Origin: Levilactobacillus lindianensis
GTDB lineage: Bacteria > Bacillota > Bacilli > Lactobacillales > Lactobacillaceae
Assembly (NCBI RefSeq): GCF_003946095.1
Contig: NZ_RHOD01000001.1
Location: 93,497-157,496, forward strand
Reading direction: 5' to 3'
DNA: 64,000 bases
Shown here: one piece after another, positions 7,692 through 53,426 of the stretch
Layout: the number at the start of each line of letters is the position of its first letter
Numbering within the stretch: the stretch's first letter is position 1
The notes under the pieces: model-generated
What the model was told of the DNA's origin: nothing
Seen by the model: the letters and a program-made list of their open reading frames with translations, nothing else
Database searches by the model: none
Position numbers and translations under genes: made by a program

Positions 7692-8237
7692 TTAATCTTG
7701 AGTCGTCGTGTGGTTCCGCGTACGGCCACGGTTGGAGTTCCGCCGTTTATCATGTAAACTGTCGAACCCAACGAAGCCAGCCGCAACGGCCCGCTCATTG
7801 GCGCGGTGAAGGACCTTGATAAAGTGTTCTGCTTCGTCCTTACCAAAGAAGCCTAACCAACGGTGGAACCGTTCGTCCGTCGCCTGTGCCAGGTTCCGTT
7901 GAACCCGACTACCCGCGGCTGTCAAAGTAATGTACTTGACCCGCCGGTCATTAGGATCGACCTTCTGCATCACGTAGTTTTCCTTCAACAACACGTTAAC
8001 TTGACGAGCAATGGCACTCTTTGAAACGCCTTCTAACTTGGCCAATTCCACCAACGTCTGCCCGTTCTTACTCCGCGCAACGTTTTCCATTACCATGAAG
8101 GCTTCAAAAGTTAAATTATACTTTTGGGTGGGAATCGAAACAAAGTCACCGATGTACTTGAAGATGTGCATGTACAGGTCGTCAAATTGTTTCTTTAATT
8201 CTGCTTCCGTAACGTTTTCGTTTGTCGTCTCTGTCAT
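7692..8237 (-). CDS. MarR-family transcriptional regulator
   Basis: 181 residues. The winged-helix core is visible at about 45-115: LTFEAFMVMENVA, then the helix-turn-helix TLVELAKLEGVSKSAIARQVNVLLKENYV, then the wing with the family DxRRVKYITLT motif (DPNDRRVKYITLTAAG). The C-terminal tail (RRNSNRGRTRNHTTTQD) is basic, low-complexity and not usual for the family. ATG at 8237; GAAGGAG lies 13 bases upstream, which is rather far. It is divergent from the LexA-boxed small gene at 8488, with 250 bp between. MarR proteins bind palindromes and respond to phenolics, oxidants or lipids; the target here is not evident. Confidence 0.88.
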   Translation of the reverse strand: MTETTNENVTEAELKKQFDDLYMHIFKYIGDFVSIPTQKYNLTFEAFMVMENVARSKNGQTLVELAKLEGVSKSAIARQVNVLLKENYVMQKVDPNDRRVKYITLTAAGSRVQRNLAQATDERFHRWLGFFGKDEAEHFIKVLHRANERAVAAGFVGFDSLHDKRRNSNRGRTRNHTTTQD

Positions 8238-15999: not shown

Positions 16000-16134
16000 G
16001 GTTTTATAAAAAAGTCCAGATCGTTACGGATCCTTAATACACCGGTGATTGCGACACGTCGTGTTCCATTTATAGGGGCCAAATATCACCCAAATCTGCG
16101 TCGCAAAAACGGTCGAAACGGTTTACCAAAAAGA

Positions 16135-16203
16135 GTGCCAAAAAGGGCGATTAGTCAATGAGCATTATCGGGGTTAAGCGGAGTTGACTGCCTTTTTTGG
16201 CAC
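16135..16203 (-). repeat. E2 structured element, copy 1 (minimal, inverted)
   Basis: Outer arms GTGCCAAAAAGGGC and GCCTTTTTTGGCAC close it, with inner helix AGTCAA/TTGACT. The conserved loop strands TGAGCATTA and GGGGTTAAGCGGAG are present, but the distal hairpin of the other copies is missing. It lies between ohyA and the terminator of the gene ending at 16287. Confidence 0.7.
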
Positions 16204-16232
16204 ATTTCAGCAATATAAACTCAACCGTCCAC

Positions 16233-31904: not shown

Positions 31905-32058
31905 CTGATGTGGTTTGTCTGATAGTTCTGGTCAGATTGACTGTTGTCTGTTTTCTTTACTGTGTTTGATGCATTTTATTAAATAGTTAGACCTGTTTGA
32001 TGCGTTAGAACCGGATCGGCTTCCGCCGCTTGATCCTTGGGGTGGCGGCCTCCGAAAC

Positions 32059-32169
32059 GTGCTCCGCCAACCAGCTCCCTGCGCTTAACCCCGTATCGGT
32101 CATGACCCAAGACCAGGGTCATAACCGATACGACGTTAATGCTCAGGAGCTAACCGGTTGGCTCCGCAC
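32059..32169 (+). repeat. E2 structured element, copy 2
   Basis: Outer helix GCCAACC/GGTTGGC, second helix AGCTCC/GGAGCT, then loop strands TGCGCTTAACCCC and ACGTTAATGCTC, and distal helix GTATCGGT/ACCGATAC capped by ATGACCC/GGGTCAT. All helix sequences differ from the other copies, but the loop is nearly unchanged. It ends 10 bp from the stop of the aldo/keto reductase gene. Confidence 0.8.
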
Positions 32170-32178
32170 TCTATTTTT

Positions 32179-33024
32179 TTAATCCCCAACCGGATGCCAG
32201 CCGTTGGCATCACTCAGCCGGTTCAAGAACGCCATGTCCTTGTCGTTGATTTCGAAGTCGAGCTTGGCGTTGGCTTCAACGTGGGCCATTGCCCGGGCCT
32301 TTGGGAGTGGCGCCACGCCATTTTGGATGACGAAACGCAACGCTAATTGGGGAATCGACACGTTGTAGTTACCGGCAACGCGTTCGAGCTCTGGGCTATC
32401 GACCAAGCCACCGGTTGCCAGTGGAGAGTAAGCCTGAACCAGAATCTGGTTGGCCTTGGCCGTCTTCACAATCGTGTCCTGCGTGTGCCCCACGTAGTAT
32501 TGAATCTGGTCAACGGCCGGTTTAACCGTCAGGCCGTCCCACGTTAACAGGTTGTCGAGGTCATGGGAATTGAAGTTAGAGACCCCAATCGCCTTGGCCC
32601 GGCCACTGTTGTAGATAGCTTGCATGGCTCGCCACACGTCGCGGTTTTCGGCATCATGATTACTGCCCATTTGGACCCATGGCCAAGGTGCATGGATGAT
32701 GTAAGAATCCACGTAGTCCAAGTTCAAGGCGGCTAAGCTACTCTCGAAGTCAGCCATTGCGGCATCGTAACTCTTCGACTCGGCAGGCAACTTCGTTTGG
32801 ACGAAAATGTCCTCGCGCGCCACGTCACTGTCAGCGATGGCCTCACCCACGCTCTGTTCATTCTGGTAAGCCTTGGCGGTATCAATGAAACGGTAACCAG
32901 CCGTTAGAGCATTGGTCACGGCATCGTAGGTTTCCTTGCCGGGCCGCGTTTGCCAAGTCCCAAAACCAACTTTGGGCATCTTTAAGTCATTATTTAAGGT
33001 AAATTCATCTGTAATTGTCGGCAT
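32179..33024 (-). CDS. Aldo/keto reductase (2,5-diketogluconate-reductase type)
   Basis: 281 residues; ATG 33024 follows ATGGAGGAG. Motifs include LKMPKVGFGTWQT, YRFIDTAKAYQNEQSVGEAI (Asp and Tyr of the catalytic tetrad), FVQTKLPAES (Lys), DYVDSYIIHAPWPW (His) and GVSNFNSHDLDNL. It is of the YvgN/DkgA type that reduces small carbonyls such as methylglyoxal or keto-sugars with NADPH. It is a different branch from the 335-residue reductase at 26819. It lies 73 bp after the CoA-disulfide reductase gene on the same strand, so co-transcription is possible. Confidence 0.92.
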   Translation of the reverse strand: MPTITDEFTLNNDLKMPKVGFGTWQTRPGKETYDAVTNALTAGYRFIDTAKAYQNEQSVGEAIADSDVAREDIFVQTKLPAESKSYDAAMADFESSLAALNLDYVDSYIIHAPWPWVQMGSNHDAENRDVWRAMQAIYNSGRAKAIGVSNFNSHDLDNLLTWDGLTVKPAVDQIQYYVGHTQDTIVKTAKANQILVQAYSPLATGGLVDSPELERVAGNYNVSIPQLALRFVIQNGVAPLPKARAMAHVEANAKLDFEINDKDMAFLNRLSDANGWHPVGD

Positions 33025-38610: not shown

Positions 38611-38759
38611 ACATTGGTGCTTTCCGGTAACGTTGTTGGAACGTCCTTCAACCTACCGTCGCGTATAATCCGAAATTAATCAATTCAATTTTGCTTTTCT
38701 TTTGGGCCTGGGACAACCGTTCCAGACCCTTTTGCACGCCAAATATCTACAGTCGCAAC

Positions 38760-47290: not shown

Positions 47291-47321
47291 AGGGAGGCCT
47301 TGCCGATTGGCACGCCTCCCT
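47291..47321 (-). terminator. Terminator downstream of paralogue B and E2 copy 4
   Basis: AGGGAGGC pairs with GCCTCCCT; four T follow on the minus strand. Confidence 0.75.
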
Positions 47322-47351
47322 GGGTTGCTTTGAATTTTATGTGGTCGAAAC

Positions 47352-47462
47352 GTGTGAAGAAGGGCAGTCGACTCCGCTTAACCCCGCTAAGAAAATCATC
47401 CAAGACCAGGATGATTCTCTTAGCGACGTTAATGCTCGACGACTAACCGCCCTTTTTCACAC
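47352..47462 (+). repeat. E2 structured element, copy 4
   Basis: Outer helix GTGTGAA/TTCACAC, second helix AGTCG/CGACT, loop strands CTCCGCTTAACCCCG and ACGTTAATGCTC, distal helices GCTAAGA/TCTTAGC and AATCATCC/GGATGATT. It starts 5 bp from the stop of paralogue B. The flank before it (TTTGAATTTTA...GGTCGAAAC) is also shared with copy 5. Confidence 0.82.
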
Positions 47463-47466
47463 TCTT

Positions 47467-48474
47467 CTATGCCATCCACCCACCGACGTCAACGAAGCTA
47501 ACCTTCCCGGCCGGCGTTACCGTAACCTGATAGACAATCCCTTGAATATCAAAGTTAGCGCGGGCCTTAAAGGTCAGATTCGTGTCATCAGTTGGGGTCA
47601 ACGTGGCGACCTCTTTGACCGCACCAGTGGCGGTCCGGGTCGTCCGCGTGGTCACACGCCCATCTTTAAAATTGTAAATGATGGTCTGACTGTTCTGCTT
47701 TAACAAAACGACGCGTTGGACGACACCATCCTTGACGGCAACCCCCACCTTAACGTGACCCTTCTTATCAATGGTCGTGGTGGTCGTGCTGGTTCCTGTC
47801 AGATCGCGCGTTAATTCACGGTTAATCAGGTCGGGATAGGTGCCCTTGTTGAGTGTCTTTGCTGGTAACCAGCCAACCGCCTTACCCGCTGCCGTTTCCA
47901 GGTACAGGTATTGCTTCTTGCTGGTCGTGGTCAACGACTGAATCGCATACAACGTCCGGTAACCATAGGTGCTCCCATAATGTAACGCCACCGTGGTTCC
48001 TAGCGTCTTAGCCGGCATACTCCAGAAGTCATGCGTCGTCGTTGGGGTCCAGTAGGCCGTCTTCTGAAGAGACTTGAGCTGCGTGATCTTCTCGTGCGCC
48101 TTCAGTTTGTTCAAGGCAACATAGCCCCCAACTAATTTAGTAGAGGCTGGCTTCGACCCAATCACAATCGTCCCGTGAGACAACGGCTTAGCACTCACCA
48201 GAGCTAACCGCACGTAGCGTTTCCCCTTGACCGCCACAACCTTGGTGGCCGTCCACCGCTTCGTCGTACTCTTGGCCTGGCCTAAGGCGTGCTGGCCCGA
48301 AGCCGCGGCCTTAGGTGTCCGGTAAACCGGTGTCCCCTTGGCCTTAAACGTTAAGATTCGTTGCACGGGATACGTGGGTAACTTGACCCGACTCGCGGCC
48401 TGAGCTACCGTGACGCTGGTTCCCACGGTCAGCCCTAGGACGGCGGCGACCGTTAACTTTAACCATCTCTGCAT
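47467..48474 (-). CDS. Secreted SH3/GW-like protein, paralogue B
   Basis: 335 residues from ATG 48474, directly behind GGAGGAG; a start 12 codons upstream lacks a ribosome-binding site. The signal peptide (LTVAAVLGLTVGTSVTVAQA) is followed by YPVQRILTFKAKGTPVYRTP, GYVALNKLKAHEKI, LQKTAYWTPTTTHDFWSMPA and GKAVGWLPAKTLNKGTYPDL. A C-terminal beta domain follows (GVVQRVVLLKQN, NFKDGRVTTR). The order and many residues match paralogue A. It is likely a wall-associated protein of unknown role. The gene starts 50 bp after the C69 dipeptidase gene and may be co-transcribed with it. Confidence 0.75.
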   Translation of the reverse strand: MQRWLKLTVAAVLGLTVGTSVTVAQAASRVKLPTYPVQRILTFKAKGTPVYRTPKAAASGQHALGQAKSTTKRWTATKVVAVKGKRYVRLALVSAKPLSHGTIVIGSKPASTKLVGGYVALNKLKAHEKITQLKSLQKTAYWTPTTTHDFWSMPAKTLGTTVALHYGSTYGYRTLYAIQSLTTTSKKQYLYLETAAGKAVGWLPAKTLNKGTYPDLINRELTRDLTGTSTTTTTIDKKGHVKVGVAVKDGVVQRVVLLKQNSQTIIYNFKDGRVTTRTTRTATGAVKEVATLTPTDDTNLTFKARANFDIQGIVYQVTVTPAGKVSFVDVGGWMA

Positions 48475-48523
48475 AGTCTCCTCCTCCGAAACGCAAACGA
48501 CTGTTTCCAATTCTGACGATAGC

Positions 48524-50547: not shown

Positions 50548-50566
50548 GAATTTACATGGTCGAAAC

Positions 50567-50677
50567 GTGTGAAAACAGGCAGCCGACTCCGCTTAAGCCT
50601 GATAACCACCTAATCCAAGTGCGGGATTAGCCGGTTATCAACCTTAATGCTCATCGGCTAACCGCCTGTTGTCACAC
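50567..50677 (+). repeat. E2 structured element, copy 5
   Basis: Outer helix GTGTGA...ACAGGC/GCCTGT...TCACAC, second helix GCCGA/TCGGC, loop strands CTCCGCTTAAGCC and CCTTAATGCTC, distal helices GATAACC/GGTTATC and TAATCC/GGATTA. It ends 5 bp from the stop of the P-type ATPase gene. Confidence 0.82.
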
Positions 50678-50681
50678 TCTT

Positions 50682-53426
50682 TTACAAGCGCTGTTCTCTC
50701 TGAACAATACTATTATCCAACCGGTGGCGAATTGCCTTGGCGATCTCCGTCACGATGAGGACCACCGCCCCCGCCATGATTGGGATCCCCCAACCATAGT
50801 GGAAGTTGACCGACGTCGTGTGGAAGACACTCTGCATGGCTGGCCAGTAAATAATGCCGGCCTGTAGAACCAACAGAATGGCCACAATCACAAAGCTCAT
50901 CTTGTTTCTAAAGAAGTACTTCGACAGAACTGGGTGATCATTTTGCAAGTTGAAGAGGTAGAAGACCTTCCCGAAGATGATGACATTTAACGTCATGGTA
51001 CTGCCAATCACTGCTGACAGTCCTTGGGACGTCAGGAGGTCGTAGGCGAACATCCCCAGCCCAGAAATCAGGAGAGAGACGTAGGCTACCTCAAACATAT
51101 CAAGCTTCGATAAGATTCCGCGGCTGACGTCTCGTGGCCCCCGCTTCATGATCCCACTCTCGGCAGGTTCGAAGATGAAGGCAAATTGAATCGTCAACGC
51201 GGATACCATGTTAATCCACAACAGTTGCGTTGGGAACAAGGGTAGCTCTTGGTCCATCAGGATACTGAGGACCACGATCAGCCCTTCGGCAAAACTGGTT
51301 GGCAAGAGGAATCGAATCGTTTTACGAATGTTATCGAAAACGTGGCGCCCCTCACGAACCGCCCCTAAAATCGAAGTGAAGTCATCATCGGCCAGCACCA
51401 TATCGGCGGAGTCCTTGGCGACGTCGGTTCCCCGAATCCCCATGGCAACCCCAATATCGGCTTGCTTCAAGGCGGGCGCATCGTTGACCCCGTCACCCGT
51501 CATGGAAACCACGTGACCACGCTGTTGTTGGGCCTTCACGATCCGCAATTTATCAGCAGGGGTGGTCCGGGCAAACACCGTGTACTGGTCAATCTTAGCG
51601 GCCAGTTCGTCGTCACTCAGCTGGGCCAACTCGGGTCCAGTGATGGCCTTGGCCTTCTCGGACAGGTTCAGCTGCTGAGCAATCGCGGCCGCGGTCTCAG
51701 GGTCATCCCCCGTGATCATCTTGACCTTGATACCAGCATACCGGAGTTGTTTAACGGCATCGGCCACCCCAGGACGTGGGGGATCAATGATCCCAGCCAT
51801 CCCGGCCAGGTGGAAGTTCTGCCCGATTGGCAGGTCATCCACTTCATCGGCGTCGGCGGCCACAGATTGGTACCCTAAGGCGACGACCCGCTTTCCTTGT
51901 TGTGTCAGCTGAGAAATCCGGGCTTGCCAGGCATCTTGATCGACGGTCTGGCCCTGTTCGGTCATCAACCGCATCAAGGTTTGCGGTGCCCCCTTAACCA
52001 ACAATACCCGTTGGTCACGGTGATCCACCAGTCGTGCGGAATAGCGGATAGCGGAGTCAAATGGTAACGAGTCAATCTCCTGCGGTGCGGGGTCGTTGCC
52101 GATTAGCTTATGATACAGCGCGGTCAAGGCCCCATCGGTTGGTTCCCCGGTCAAGACCCACTGCCCATCTTCCTCGTGGAACTGGGCATCGGAGGTCTGA
52201 CCGGCGATCTGAACTAACCACTCGAGGTCGGTATCATCGCGCCAAGCCACGGTCTGACCCTCGTCATTTTCAACCTGACCAGCCGCATCATACCCAACGC
52301 CGGAAACGGTATAGGTGTCGGCGGCGGTCAGGACATCCGTCACGGTCATTTCATTTTTCGTCAACGTCCCGGTCTTATCGGTGTTAACGATATCGACGGC
52401 CCCCAGTGTTTCCACTGCGGGTAACGTCTTCACGATCACATTTTGCTTAGTCATCGCTTGGGTCCCCATGGCCAAGACCACCGACGTACTAGCCGGTAAC
52501 CCTTCAGGCATCGAACCCACAACCATCGTAATTACGGCAATCAACAGTGTTGGTAGGCTGTAAACGTGGGTAATCATTCCCAGGATAAAGAGCAGAACTG
52601 CCGCGACCAAGATGGCAATCGACAGACCAAGTCCCAGCCCATTGAGGTTCTTCATCAGTGGCGTTCGTTGTTGCTTAACTTCGGCCACGTTCTGTTGGAT
52701 GTGACCAATCTCAGTGTTGGCACCGGTCACCGTCACAATTCCTCGACCGGACCCACTGGTCACCGCCGTCGAAGCAAAGGCTTGATTCGACCGTTCGGCC
52801 AGCGCTAAATTAGCACTGGGTAAGGGATCCTCACCCTTTTCGACCGAGTCAGTTTCCCCAGTCAAGGCGGATTCCTGAATCTTCAGGTTATCCGCATCAA
52901 TTAGCCGCAGGTCGGCGGGGACGGTATCCCCCGCTTCCAGCTGAACGACGTCCCCCTTCACCAATTCACGGGAAGGTAAGGTGATCTTCTGGCCATCACG
53001 GAAGACGACGGCCTCGGAGACCAGCAGGGCCTTAATTTTATCGAGGGCATTATCCGCCGACTTTTCTTGGAAATAACCGATAAAGGCGTTCGCGATAATC
53101 ACCAGTCCGATAACGATTGAGTCGGAGTAGTGGTGCATGAAGAAGGTGAGTAAGGCGGCACCCGCCAGGATATAGATGATACTGTTGTTGAACTGCTTTA
53201 AGAAACGTAAGAGGTTCGATTGTTTCTTAGCGGTCAGTTCGTTAGGCCCATCCGCACGCAGTCTTTGCTGCGCCTCGTCGGTCGTGAGCCCGGCATCCCT
53301 ATCGGTAGCGAATTCGGTTAACAGCTCTGACGTTGTCTTTTGCCAAAGCGACTCCTGACTGGGTCCAGGGTCGGTGGTTTCAGTTTCGGTAGTTGTGGAG
53401 ACAGTTGCTTCTGTTTCTTGTGCCAT
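50682..53426 (-). CDS. P2-type cation-transporting ATPase (Ca2+-type)
   Basis: 914 residues; ATG 53426 follows AAAGGAT. The N-terminal cation ATPase domain reads WQKTTSELLTEFATDRDAGL and then EAQQRLRADGPNELT. TGET(D)SVEKG is the actuator loop, and PEGLPASTSVVLA in helix 4 is typical of P2A Ca2+ pumps. The phosphorylation site is NTDKTGTLTKNEMTV, and the hinge is MTGDGVNDAPALKQADIGVAMG. Ten membrane helices are expected. The N-terminal 20 residues are Thr/Glu-rich. It probably exports Ca2+ or a related cation. It is monocistronic; E2 copy 5 lies at its 3' end. Confidence 0.92.
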   Translation of the reverse strand: MAQETEATVSTTTETETTDPGPSQESLWQKTTSELLTEFATDRDAGLTTDEAQQRLRADGPNELTAKKQSNLLRFLKQFNNSIIYILAGAALLTFFMHHYSDSIVIGLVIIANAFIGYFQEKSADNALDKIKALLVSEAVVFRDGQKITLPSRELVKGDVVQLEAGDTVPADLRLIDADNLKIQESALTGETDSVEKGEDPLPSANLALAERSNQAFASTAVTSGSGRGIVTVTGANTEIGHIQQNVAEVKQQRTPLMKNLNGLGLGLSIAILVAAVLLFILGMITHVYSLPTLLIAVITMVVGSMPEGLPASTSVVLAMGTQAMTKQNVIVKTLPAVETLGAVDIVNTDKTGTLTKNEMTVTDVLTAADTYTVSGVGYDAAGQVENDEGQTVAWRDDTDLEWLVQIAGQTSDAQFHEEDGQWVLTGEPTDGALTALYHKLIGNDPAPQEIDSLPFDSAIRYSARLVDHRDQRVLLVKGAPQTLMRLMTEQGQTVDQDAWQARISQLTQQGKRVVALGYQSVAADADEVDDLPIGQNFHLAGMAGIIDPPRPGVADAVKQLRYAGIKVKMITGDDPETAAAIAQQLNLSEKAKAITGPELAQLSDDELAAKIDQYTVFARTTPADKLRIVKAQQQRGHVVSMTGDGVNDAPALKQADIGVAMGIRGTDVAKDSADMVLADDDFTSILGAVREGRHVFDNIRKTIRFLLPTSFAEGLIVVLSILMDQELPLFPTQLLWINMVSALTIQFAFIFEPAESGIMKRGPRDVSRGILSKLDMFEVAYVSLLISGLGMFAYDLLTSQGLSAVIGSTMTLNVIIFGKVFYLFNLQNDHPVLSKYFFRNKMSFVIVAILLVLQAGIIYWPAMQSVFHTTSVNFHYGWGIPIMAGAVVLIVTEIAKAIRHRLDNSIVQREQRL

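What the first reader, a model, noticed from the sequence alone, without database searches (positions are those of the whole stretch)
47352..47462. Family E2: five elements with a conserved asymmetric internal loop between covarying helices
Copies lie at 16135 (inverted, short), 32059, 38760, 47352 and 50567. The helix next to the loop is GTCAA/TTGAC, AGCTCC/GGAGCT, AGTCG/CGACT or GCCGA/TCGGC; distal helices are different in every copy yet pair. The loop strands (CTCCGCTTAACCCCG and ACGTTAATGCTC) hardly change. A conserved loop flanked by freely changing helices is the usual mark of a binding site in RNA. I do not recognise the motif from known riboswitches or sRNAs.
Basis: seen in the sequence. 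Interest (0 to 1): 0.78.

Follow-up and report, generated by a model that had tools for sequence, protein, structure and literature searches.

The report
Stop-codon-docked mRNA hairpin repeat
Lactic acid bacteria carry, up to dozens of times per genome, a roughly 120-base sequence that can fold into a hairpin, keeps its base pairing while its letters change, and very often starts within a few bases of the stop codon of an unrelated gene; it likely works as RNA in the tail of the message, where it would be expected to influence how long the message lasts.

Summary
The five copies are real and belong to a large family: 48 places in this genome, 34 of 35 genomes of the genus (Levilactobacillus by matching contig lengths), 184 of 397 sampled genomes of the family. 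Covariation is strong: 24 of 40 pairs show double changes; 0 of 500 shuffles reach that. No Rfam match reached threshold.

The "asymmetric loop" is mostly a helix (GC-TTAAC/GTTAA-T-GC). And the selected strand is the opposite one: mismatches inside helices are A·C 119 to G·T 25 as read, that is G·U 119 to A·C 25 on the other strand, which also folds more stably in 112 of 112 copies. On that strand a stop codon ends within -14..+12 nt of the hairpin's 5' edge in 73 of 140 copies, against 1 of 140 at the other edge and 28 of 1138 control points.

So this looks like a dispersed 3'-UTR RNA module, often followed by a terminator-like hairpin, behind genes with no evident shared function. Tandem arrays, loss and block-wise helix differences show turnover. 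Its function (message stability or processing) is inferred; a selfish mobile repeat is the main rival.

The parts
47345..47465 (-). Element e47 (the finding itself); functional strand is minus, the sense strand of the gene 47467-48510
   Evidence: R1 137.5 bits; folds on minus strand at -69.5 kcal/mol, z -11.0
47467..47469 (-). Stop codon of the neighbouring gene, 1 nt from the element's sense 5' edge
   Evidence: (L062)
47292..47320 (.). Terminator-like hairpin beyond the element's other edge, after a conserved linker
   Evidence: read in the sequence; the strict scan does not list it
50560..50680 (-). Element e50, with the compensated C-G to G-C change in the core helix
   Evidence: R1 130.3 bits
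50682..50684 (-). Stop codon of the P-type cation ATPase gene 50682-53426, 1 nt from e50
   Evidence: L067
50506..50544 (.). Terminator-like hairpin between e50 and the convergent gene
   Evidence: read in the sequence; not listed by the strict scan
32052..32172 (-). Element e32; its outer helix differs as a block from that of the orthologous copies in G013 and G020
   Evidence: R1 120.4 bits
32179..32181 (-). Stop codon of the aldo/keto reductase gene 32179-33024, 6 nt from e32
   Evidence: L082
38753..38873 (-). Element e38; nearest stop codon about 103 nt away, with another terminator-like hairpin in between
   Evidence: R1 108.5 bits; (L087)
38704..38729 (.). Hairpin of the GGGTCTGGGAC type beyond e38
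   Evidence: read in the sequence
16132..16210 (+). Truncated element e16 (inner helix missing), functional strand plus; no ORF of 90 aa or more ends at its edge
   Evidence: R1 73.3 bits

Best explanation
This is a dispersed, roughly 120-nt hairpin repeat that on the coding strand very often abuts the stop codon of an unrelated gene, and it likely acts as a structured RNA in the 3' untranslated region, where it is predicted to set message lifetime or 3'-end processing through a bound protein or RNase III. Shown: the copies, the covariation, the strand bias of mismatches, the docking at stop codons, the frequent terminator-like hairpin beyond it, tandem arrays and turnover between species. Anatomy on the sense strand: stop codon, AGAGUG, outer helix, GGUU bulge, second helix, GA/GGA purine loop, GC(A)UUAAC/GUUAAGC helix with a bulged A, small mismatch, inner helix, 7-nt apical loop, then CACGUUUCGA, linker and often a terminator-like hairpin. 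Inferred: that it is transcribed with the gene; that the purine-rich motifs are a protein site; that the effect is on RNA stability or processing and not on termination alone; that copies arise and are exchanged by recombination or transposition at gene ends.
For: Covariation: 24 of 40 pairs with double changes, 0 of 500 shuffles. Position: stop codon within -14..+12 nt in 73 of 140, other edge 1 of 140, control points 28 of 1138; 20 of 49 rows in named non-Levilactobacillus loci. Terminator-like hairpin downstream in 36 of 73 and 19 of 67, on the other side 9 of 73 and 7 of 67, random 47 of 700. Elements at orthologous sites keep pairing although helices differ. Neighbouring genes are diverse.
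Against: No transcript data were available. 67 of 140 copies are not stop-adjacent by this test (21 behind another unit, 9 behind a terminator-like hairpin, 6 inside MITE-like repeats, 31 none of these). In the 19 copies of A2 alone the wobble bias is weak (5:10). Rows are related by descent, so counts are not independent, and transcription-linked C-to-T bias could add to the G.U excess (not controlled). The strict scan finds no terminator at e47 or e50. Losses, remnants and relatives without the element show that it is dispensable at a given gene. Copies in MITE-like repeats fit a mobile element better.
Confidence: 0.5

Rival explanations
1. A selfish non-autonomous mobile repeat (MITE/ERIC-like) that inserts at gene 3' ends and needs its folded or RNA form for its own spread; effects on host mRNAs are incidental.
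For: Up to dozens of copies per genome, patchy over the family; nearly unrelated neighbouring genes; an extra copy in L147 against L069 and a changed gene end in L065 against L174; copies inside MITE-like repeats.
Against: No clean empty site or target duplication was found; the one change examined at L147/L069 replaces sequence instead of adding it. Y1_Tnp is absent from 12 of 35 genomes, among them G002 and G020 with 90 and 87 model rows; RVT_1 is absent from the window's own genome; other transposase families were not tested. Pairing is kept at orthologous sites.
Confidence: 0.3
2. A composite transcription terminator or insulator: the hairpin only strengthens termination between genes, above all convergent ones.
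For: Position behind stop codons and a terminator-like hairpin beyond it in 36 of 73; e38 and e50 lie between convergent genes; stem-loops near stop codons in low-GC Firmicutes were read as mostly terminator-like (passages of PMC1590033).
Against: The hairpin itself is followed by CACGUUUCGA and a linker, not by a U-run; conserved internal motifs are not needed for intrinsic termination (established knowledge).
Confidence: 0.12
3. A single-stranded DNA hairpin recognised by a recombinase or HUH transposase (attC- or REP-like), where structure counts more than sequence.
For: Structure outlives sequence and the helix letters are free.
Against: The G.U over A.C bias is expected of RNA and hardly of DNA; docking to stop codons in one orientation; no Y1_Tnp in 12 of 35 genomes.
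Confidence: 0.05
4. An RNA on the reader's own strand (small RNA or riboswitch-like element).
For: That strand folds well too.
Against: Strand tests point the other way; at the other edge only 1 of 140 copies has a stop codon docked.
Confidence: 0.03

Closest known systems
ERIC/IRU and Correia/NEMIS repeats (passages of PMC2229807 seen)
   Same: Short dispersed intergenic repeats (127 bp; about 107 and 155 bp) whose transcripts form long hairpins; effects on mRNA stability (ERIC) or RNase III substrates (NEMIS) are reported there.
   Different: The passages describe terminal inverted repeats and target duplications; neither was shown here. Here helices covary between copies, mismatches are strand-biased, and the edge docks at stop codons.
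BOX, RUP and SPRITE of Streptococcus pneumoniae (passages of PMC3049150 seen)
   Same: Dispersed, foldable, enriched between convergent genes; SPRITE resembles a terminator; a stabilising 3' stem-loop role is suggested there.
   Different: The passages shown do not report covarying helices ('covari' occurs 0 times in the text) or docking at stop codons. No sequence comparison was made.
Efa-1 family of Enterococcus faecalis (passages of PMC2267715 seen)
   Same: 163-nt family, 65 members, intergenic, two adjacent stem-loops: a similar plan of long hairpin plus second hairpin.
   Different: Sequence relation not tested.
L17 downstream element, RF01708 (table row in PMC2864571 seen)
   Same: Listed for Lactobacillales and Listeria; by its name it lies downstream of a gene.
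   Different: No Rfam family, this one included, reached threshold in the window or in five further loci; here many unrelated genes carry the element.

Membership tests
Any Rfam 15 family | Score at or above the family's gathering threshold | tested here: not met
   Window, both strands: 0 matches at gathering score; five element-bearing loci at E up to 2: three matches, all far below their gathering scores
MITE | Terminal inverted repeats | tested here: inconclusive
   Ends pair (GTG/CAC) as the base of the hairpin, but that helix varies from copy to copy
MITE | Target-site duplication at a clean empty site | tested here: inconclusive
   Pairs with and without the element show replacement, deletion remnants or diverged flanks, no clean empty site
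REP/RAYT elements | A Y1 (RAYT) transposase in the genomes that carry the repeats | tested here: not met
   PF01797 absent from 12 of 35 genus genomes, among them G002 and G020 rich in the element; a lost enzyme is not excluded
Retroelement or group II intron | Reverse transcriptase in the genome | tested here: not met
   PF00078 in 10 of 35 genomes, none in G000; a lost enzyme is not excluded
3'-UTR RNA element of the mRNA strand | Position between stop codon and terminator, sense orientation | tested here: met
   73 of 140 against 1 of 140 and 28 of 1138; terminator-like hairpin in 36 of these 73; 67 of 140 do not meet the stop test
3'-UTR RNA element of the mRNA strand | Conserved RNA secondary structure with covariation | tested here: met
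3'-UTR RNA element of the mRNA strand | Transcribed together with the gene | not testable with these tools
   no transcriptome data
ERIC/NEMIS-like RNA function | Cleavage by RNase or change of mRNA half-life | not testable with these tools
   needs experiments
Efa-1 of E. faecalis | Sequence or structure homology to the E. faecalis repeat | not tested
   no named E. faecalis genome was searched

The most novel reading that the evidence does not exclude
A mobile 3'-UTR cassette system: RNA modules that dock to stop codons, carry their own terminator, swap helices as blocks between copies, and spread through unrelated genes of lactobacilli, giving host mRNAs a common, exchangeable tail read by one RNA-binding protein.
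Probability: 0.22. Interest if true: 0.82.

Novelty: new variant of a known kind. Interest (0 to 1): 0.62.

Why it matters
Interspersed bacterial repeats are usually treated as DNA parasites. This family shows strand-biased RNA selection and docking at stop codons in several genera of food and gut bacteria, so it gives a directly testable case of dispersed repeats serving as a shared mRNA tail (stability, processing or ribosome release), and a warning that such hairpins are easily read on the wrong strand.

Tried and rejected
attC/integron- or REP-like ssDNA hairpin: considered because structure outlives sequence; set aside on the G.U/A.C bias and the Y1_Tnp distribution. RT-driven element: no RVT_1 in G000. 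Gene-specific regulation: neighbours look unrelated. Stop-codon read-through: the 73 gaps listed show no clear frame preference (my tally by remainder of three: 19, 28, 26). Phage or plasmid origin: blastn with one copy found nothing in the plasmid or phage collections; the loop pattern occurs in two stretches of viral contigs, not examined further. Clean insertion sites: none obtained; e50 in G012 looks like a deletion remnant. Paper searches (listings only, except passages of five papers) listed no description of this family; most subscription papers are not held. R1 E-values are rough, and searches over 40 genomes used stricter filters; some hits outside the family (for instance L136, L137) lack the core motifs and may be unrelated hairpins. 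Two pattern loci, L171 (Bacilli MAG) and L209 (MAG titled Bacteroidetes), were not confirmed by R1 at 1e-7.

Full report
OBSERVATION. Four fold with z of -5.1 to -10.5 and the truncated one with -4.4. I aligned 19 genomic copies (A2); RNAalifold gave 40 pairs, 24 of them with compensatory double changes. Against 500 shuffles of partners none reached the observed 94.6% paired cells, 24 double-changed pairs or covariation score of 0.411; sliding the partners by 1-3 columns drops the score to 0.10 or less. The structure came from the same alignment, so the slid control flatters it, and the shuffles do not correct for relatedness.

The two 'loop strands' pair: GC-TTAAC with GTTAA-T-GC, one base bulged, then a small mismatch. 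The helix varies with compensation in copy e50 (TTAAG/CTTAA) and at one column pair of 112 copies (A-T 103, G-C 8, C-G 1). On the opposite strand the unpaired parts are purine-rich: GGUU bulge, GA/GGA loop, bulged A, G.G mismatch.

WHICH STRAND. An A.C mismatch on one strand is a G.U pair on the other. Counting only cells with Watson-Crick pairs on both sides: 25 and 119, with pyrimidine-pyrimidine 93 and purine-purine 18. The bias is seen at 22 column pairs against 5, and separately in 63 rows mainly of Levilactobacillus (14:64) and in 49 rows of other named genera and MAGs (11:55); capped at three per position it is 25:62. In the 19 copies of A2 it is weaker, 5:10. RNA folding energy favours the opposite strand in 112 of 112 copies, mean -61.5 against -45.3 kcal/mol; part of that difference comes from the conserved motifs and is shared by all rows. 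A mutation bias linked to transcription was not controlled.

WHERE IT SITS. Read on that strand, the element begins with AGAGTG. For 140 copies (those 112 plus 28 of 30 own-genome loci) the stop codon of an ORF of at least 70 aa ends between -14 and +12 nt of that edge in 73; the same test at the other edge gives 1 of 140, and points 300-900 nt away 28 of 1138. In the window this holds for e32 (6 nt), e47 (1 nt) and e50 (1 nt); e38 is 103 nt away behind another terminator-like hairpin, and at e16 no ORF of 90 aa or more ends there. By name, 20 of 49 rows in loci outside Levilactobacillus (MAGs included) and 46 of 81 in Levilactobacillus are stop-adjacent; 10 rows of unlisted loci hold the other 7. 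The remaining 67 of 140: 21 directly behind another unit, 9 behind a terminator-like hairpin, 6 inside MITE-like repeats, 31 none of these; the classes rest on simple patterns. A loose terminator test is positive within 110 nt downstream in 36 of 73 stop-adjacent and 19 of 67 other copies, on the other side in 9 and 7, and in 47 of 700 random stretches; the strict scan does not list the window's own examples.

GENES. In the window the genes ending at or nearest to the elements are an aldo/keto reductase (e32), a protein without a family match (e47), a P-type cation ATPase (e50) and a D-Ala-D-Ala carboxypeptidase (e38). Of 85 proteins ending near an element 64 have no homologue in the set; 7 of the 10 clusters of the rest are at least 86% identical, that is orthologues of close species.

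SPREAD. R1 finds 48 places in the window's genome (75 rows, 27 of them the same hairpin on the other strand), 34 of 35 genomes of the genus, 184 of 397 of the family in 22 of 40 genera, and 32 of 295 in an order sample, 16 of these outside the family. L122-L126, from one such outside genus, keep the core motifs. Tandem arrays exist: in Latilactobacillus fuchuensis four different units fill 4759-5264 of L206, the first of them, in sense direction, 1 nt behind a stop codon.

TURNOVER. At e32 the outer helix differs over several pairs on both arms while the inner part is closer; at e47 in G020 the outer helix is nearly the same and inner helices differ; e50 is present in G013, has collapsed in G020 and looks like a remnant in G012; at e38 G020 holds a decayed copy and G013 a different one. 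L213 and L232 are 96% identical upstream, yet the helices of element and terminator differ and still pair. L147 has an extra element that its relative L069 lacks, and in L065 the gene's last codons differ from those of the element-free relative L174. Six other species lack e32; they have the stop and then about 16-110 nt to a terminator-like hairpin (judged by eye). In L. cerevisiae the element occupies the centre of a MITE-like repeat whose other copies hold a different hairpin there. Block exchange between copies is my inference; fast compensatory change is the alternative.

MECHANISM. Strand, position and motifs point to a 3'-UTR RNA. Likely action: the long hairpin, bound at its purine motifs or cut by RNase III, sets decay from the 3' end; repeats with RNA effects of this sort are ERIC and NEMIS (passages of PMC2229807) and, as a suggestion, pneumococcal repeats (passages of PMC3049150). 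None of this was tested here. The selfish-repeat reading explains copy number and turnover better, but explains less well why pairing is kept at orthologous sites and why docking is so tight; Y1 transposases and reverse transcriptases do not track the element.

NOVELTY. No Rfam match and no description in the listings of six paper searches. It may work like known transcribed repeats but differs in strand-biased covariation and stop-codon docking, so I call it a new variant of a known kind.

Noticed in passing
L271, L277, L278 (L. cerevisiae): A different hairpin (AGGACGCGGG...CCCGCGTTTCAAAG) fills the slot of a MITE-like repeat that holds this element in other copies; its ends resemble those of the element, so it may be a second interchangeable module family.
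   Followed up: partly
L258-L262 and other rows: A multi-copy MITE-like palindromic repeat in Levilactobacillus cerevisiae, 54 match rows in one genome, carrying the element as its centre in at least five copies.
   Followed up: partly
window 31990-32050; L145 1230-1800, L152 4870-5560: A subfamily (e32, the copies behind rpoC and others) has a further conserved stretch after GTTTCGGAGGC (CGCCAGnAnnnGGATAnnATGGCGAGAGC in several copies) in place of the usual linker.
   Followed up: no
window 8019-8029 (-): Exact match to GCGTTTCAAAG, the 3' end of the second module family; four matches with up to one mismatch against 1.5 expected, possibly chance.
   Followed up: no
L065 1240-1680 against L174 3990-4250: The gene end differs where the element begins: the relative without the element reads about four more codons.
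   Followed up: partly
L256, L257 (viral contigs): Two viral contigs hold the loop pattern of the element.
   Followed up: no
G004: The only genome of 35 in the genus without any model match (99% complete); a natural contrast for finding a partner protein.
   Followed up: no
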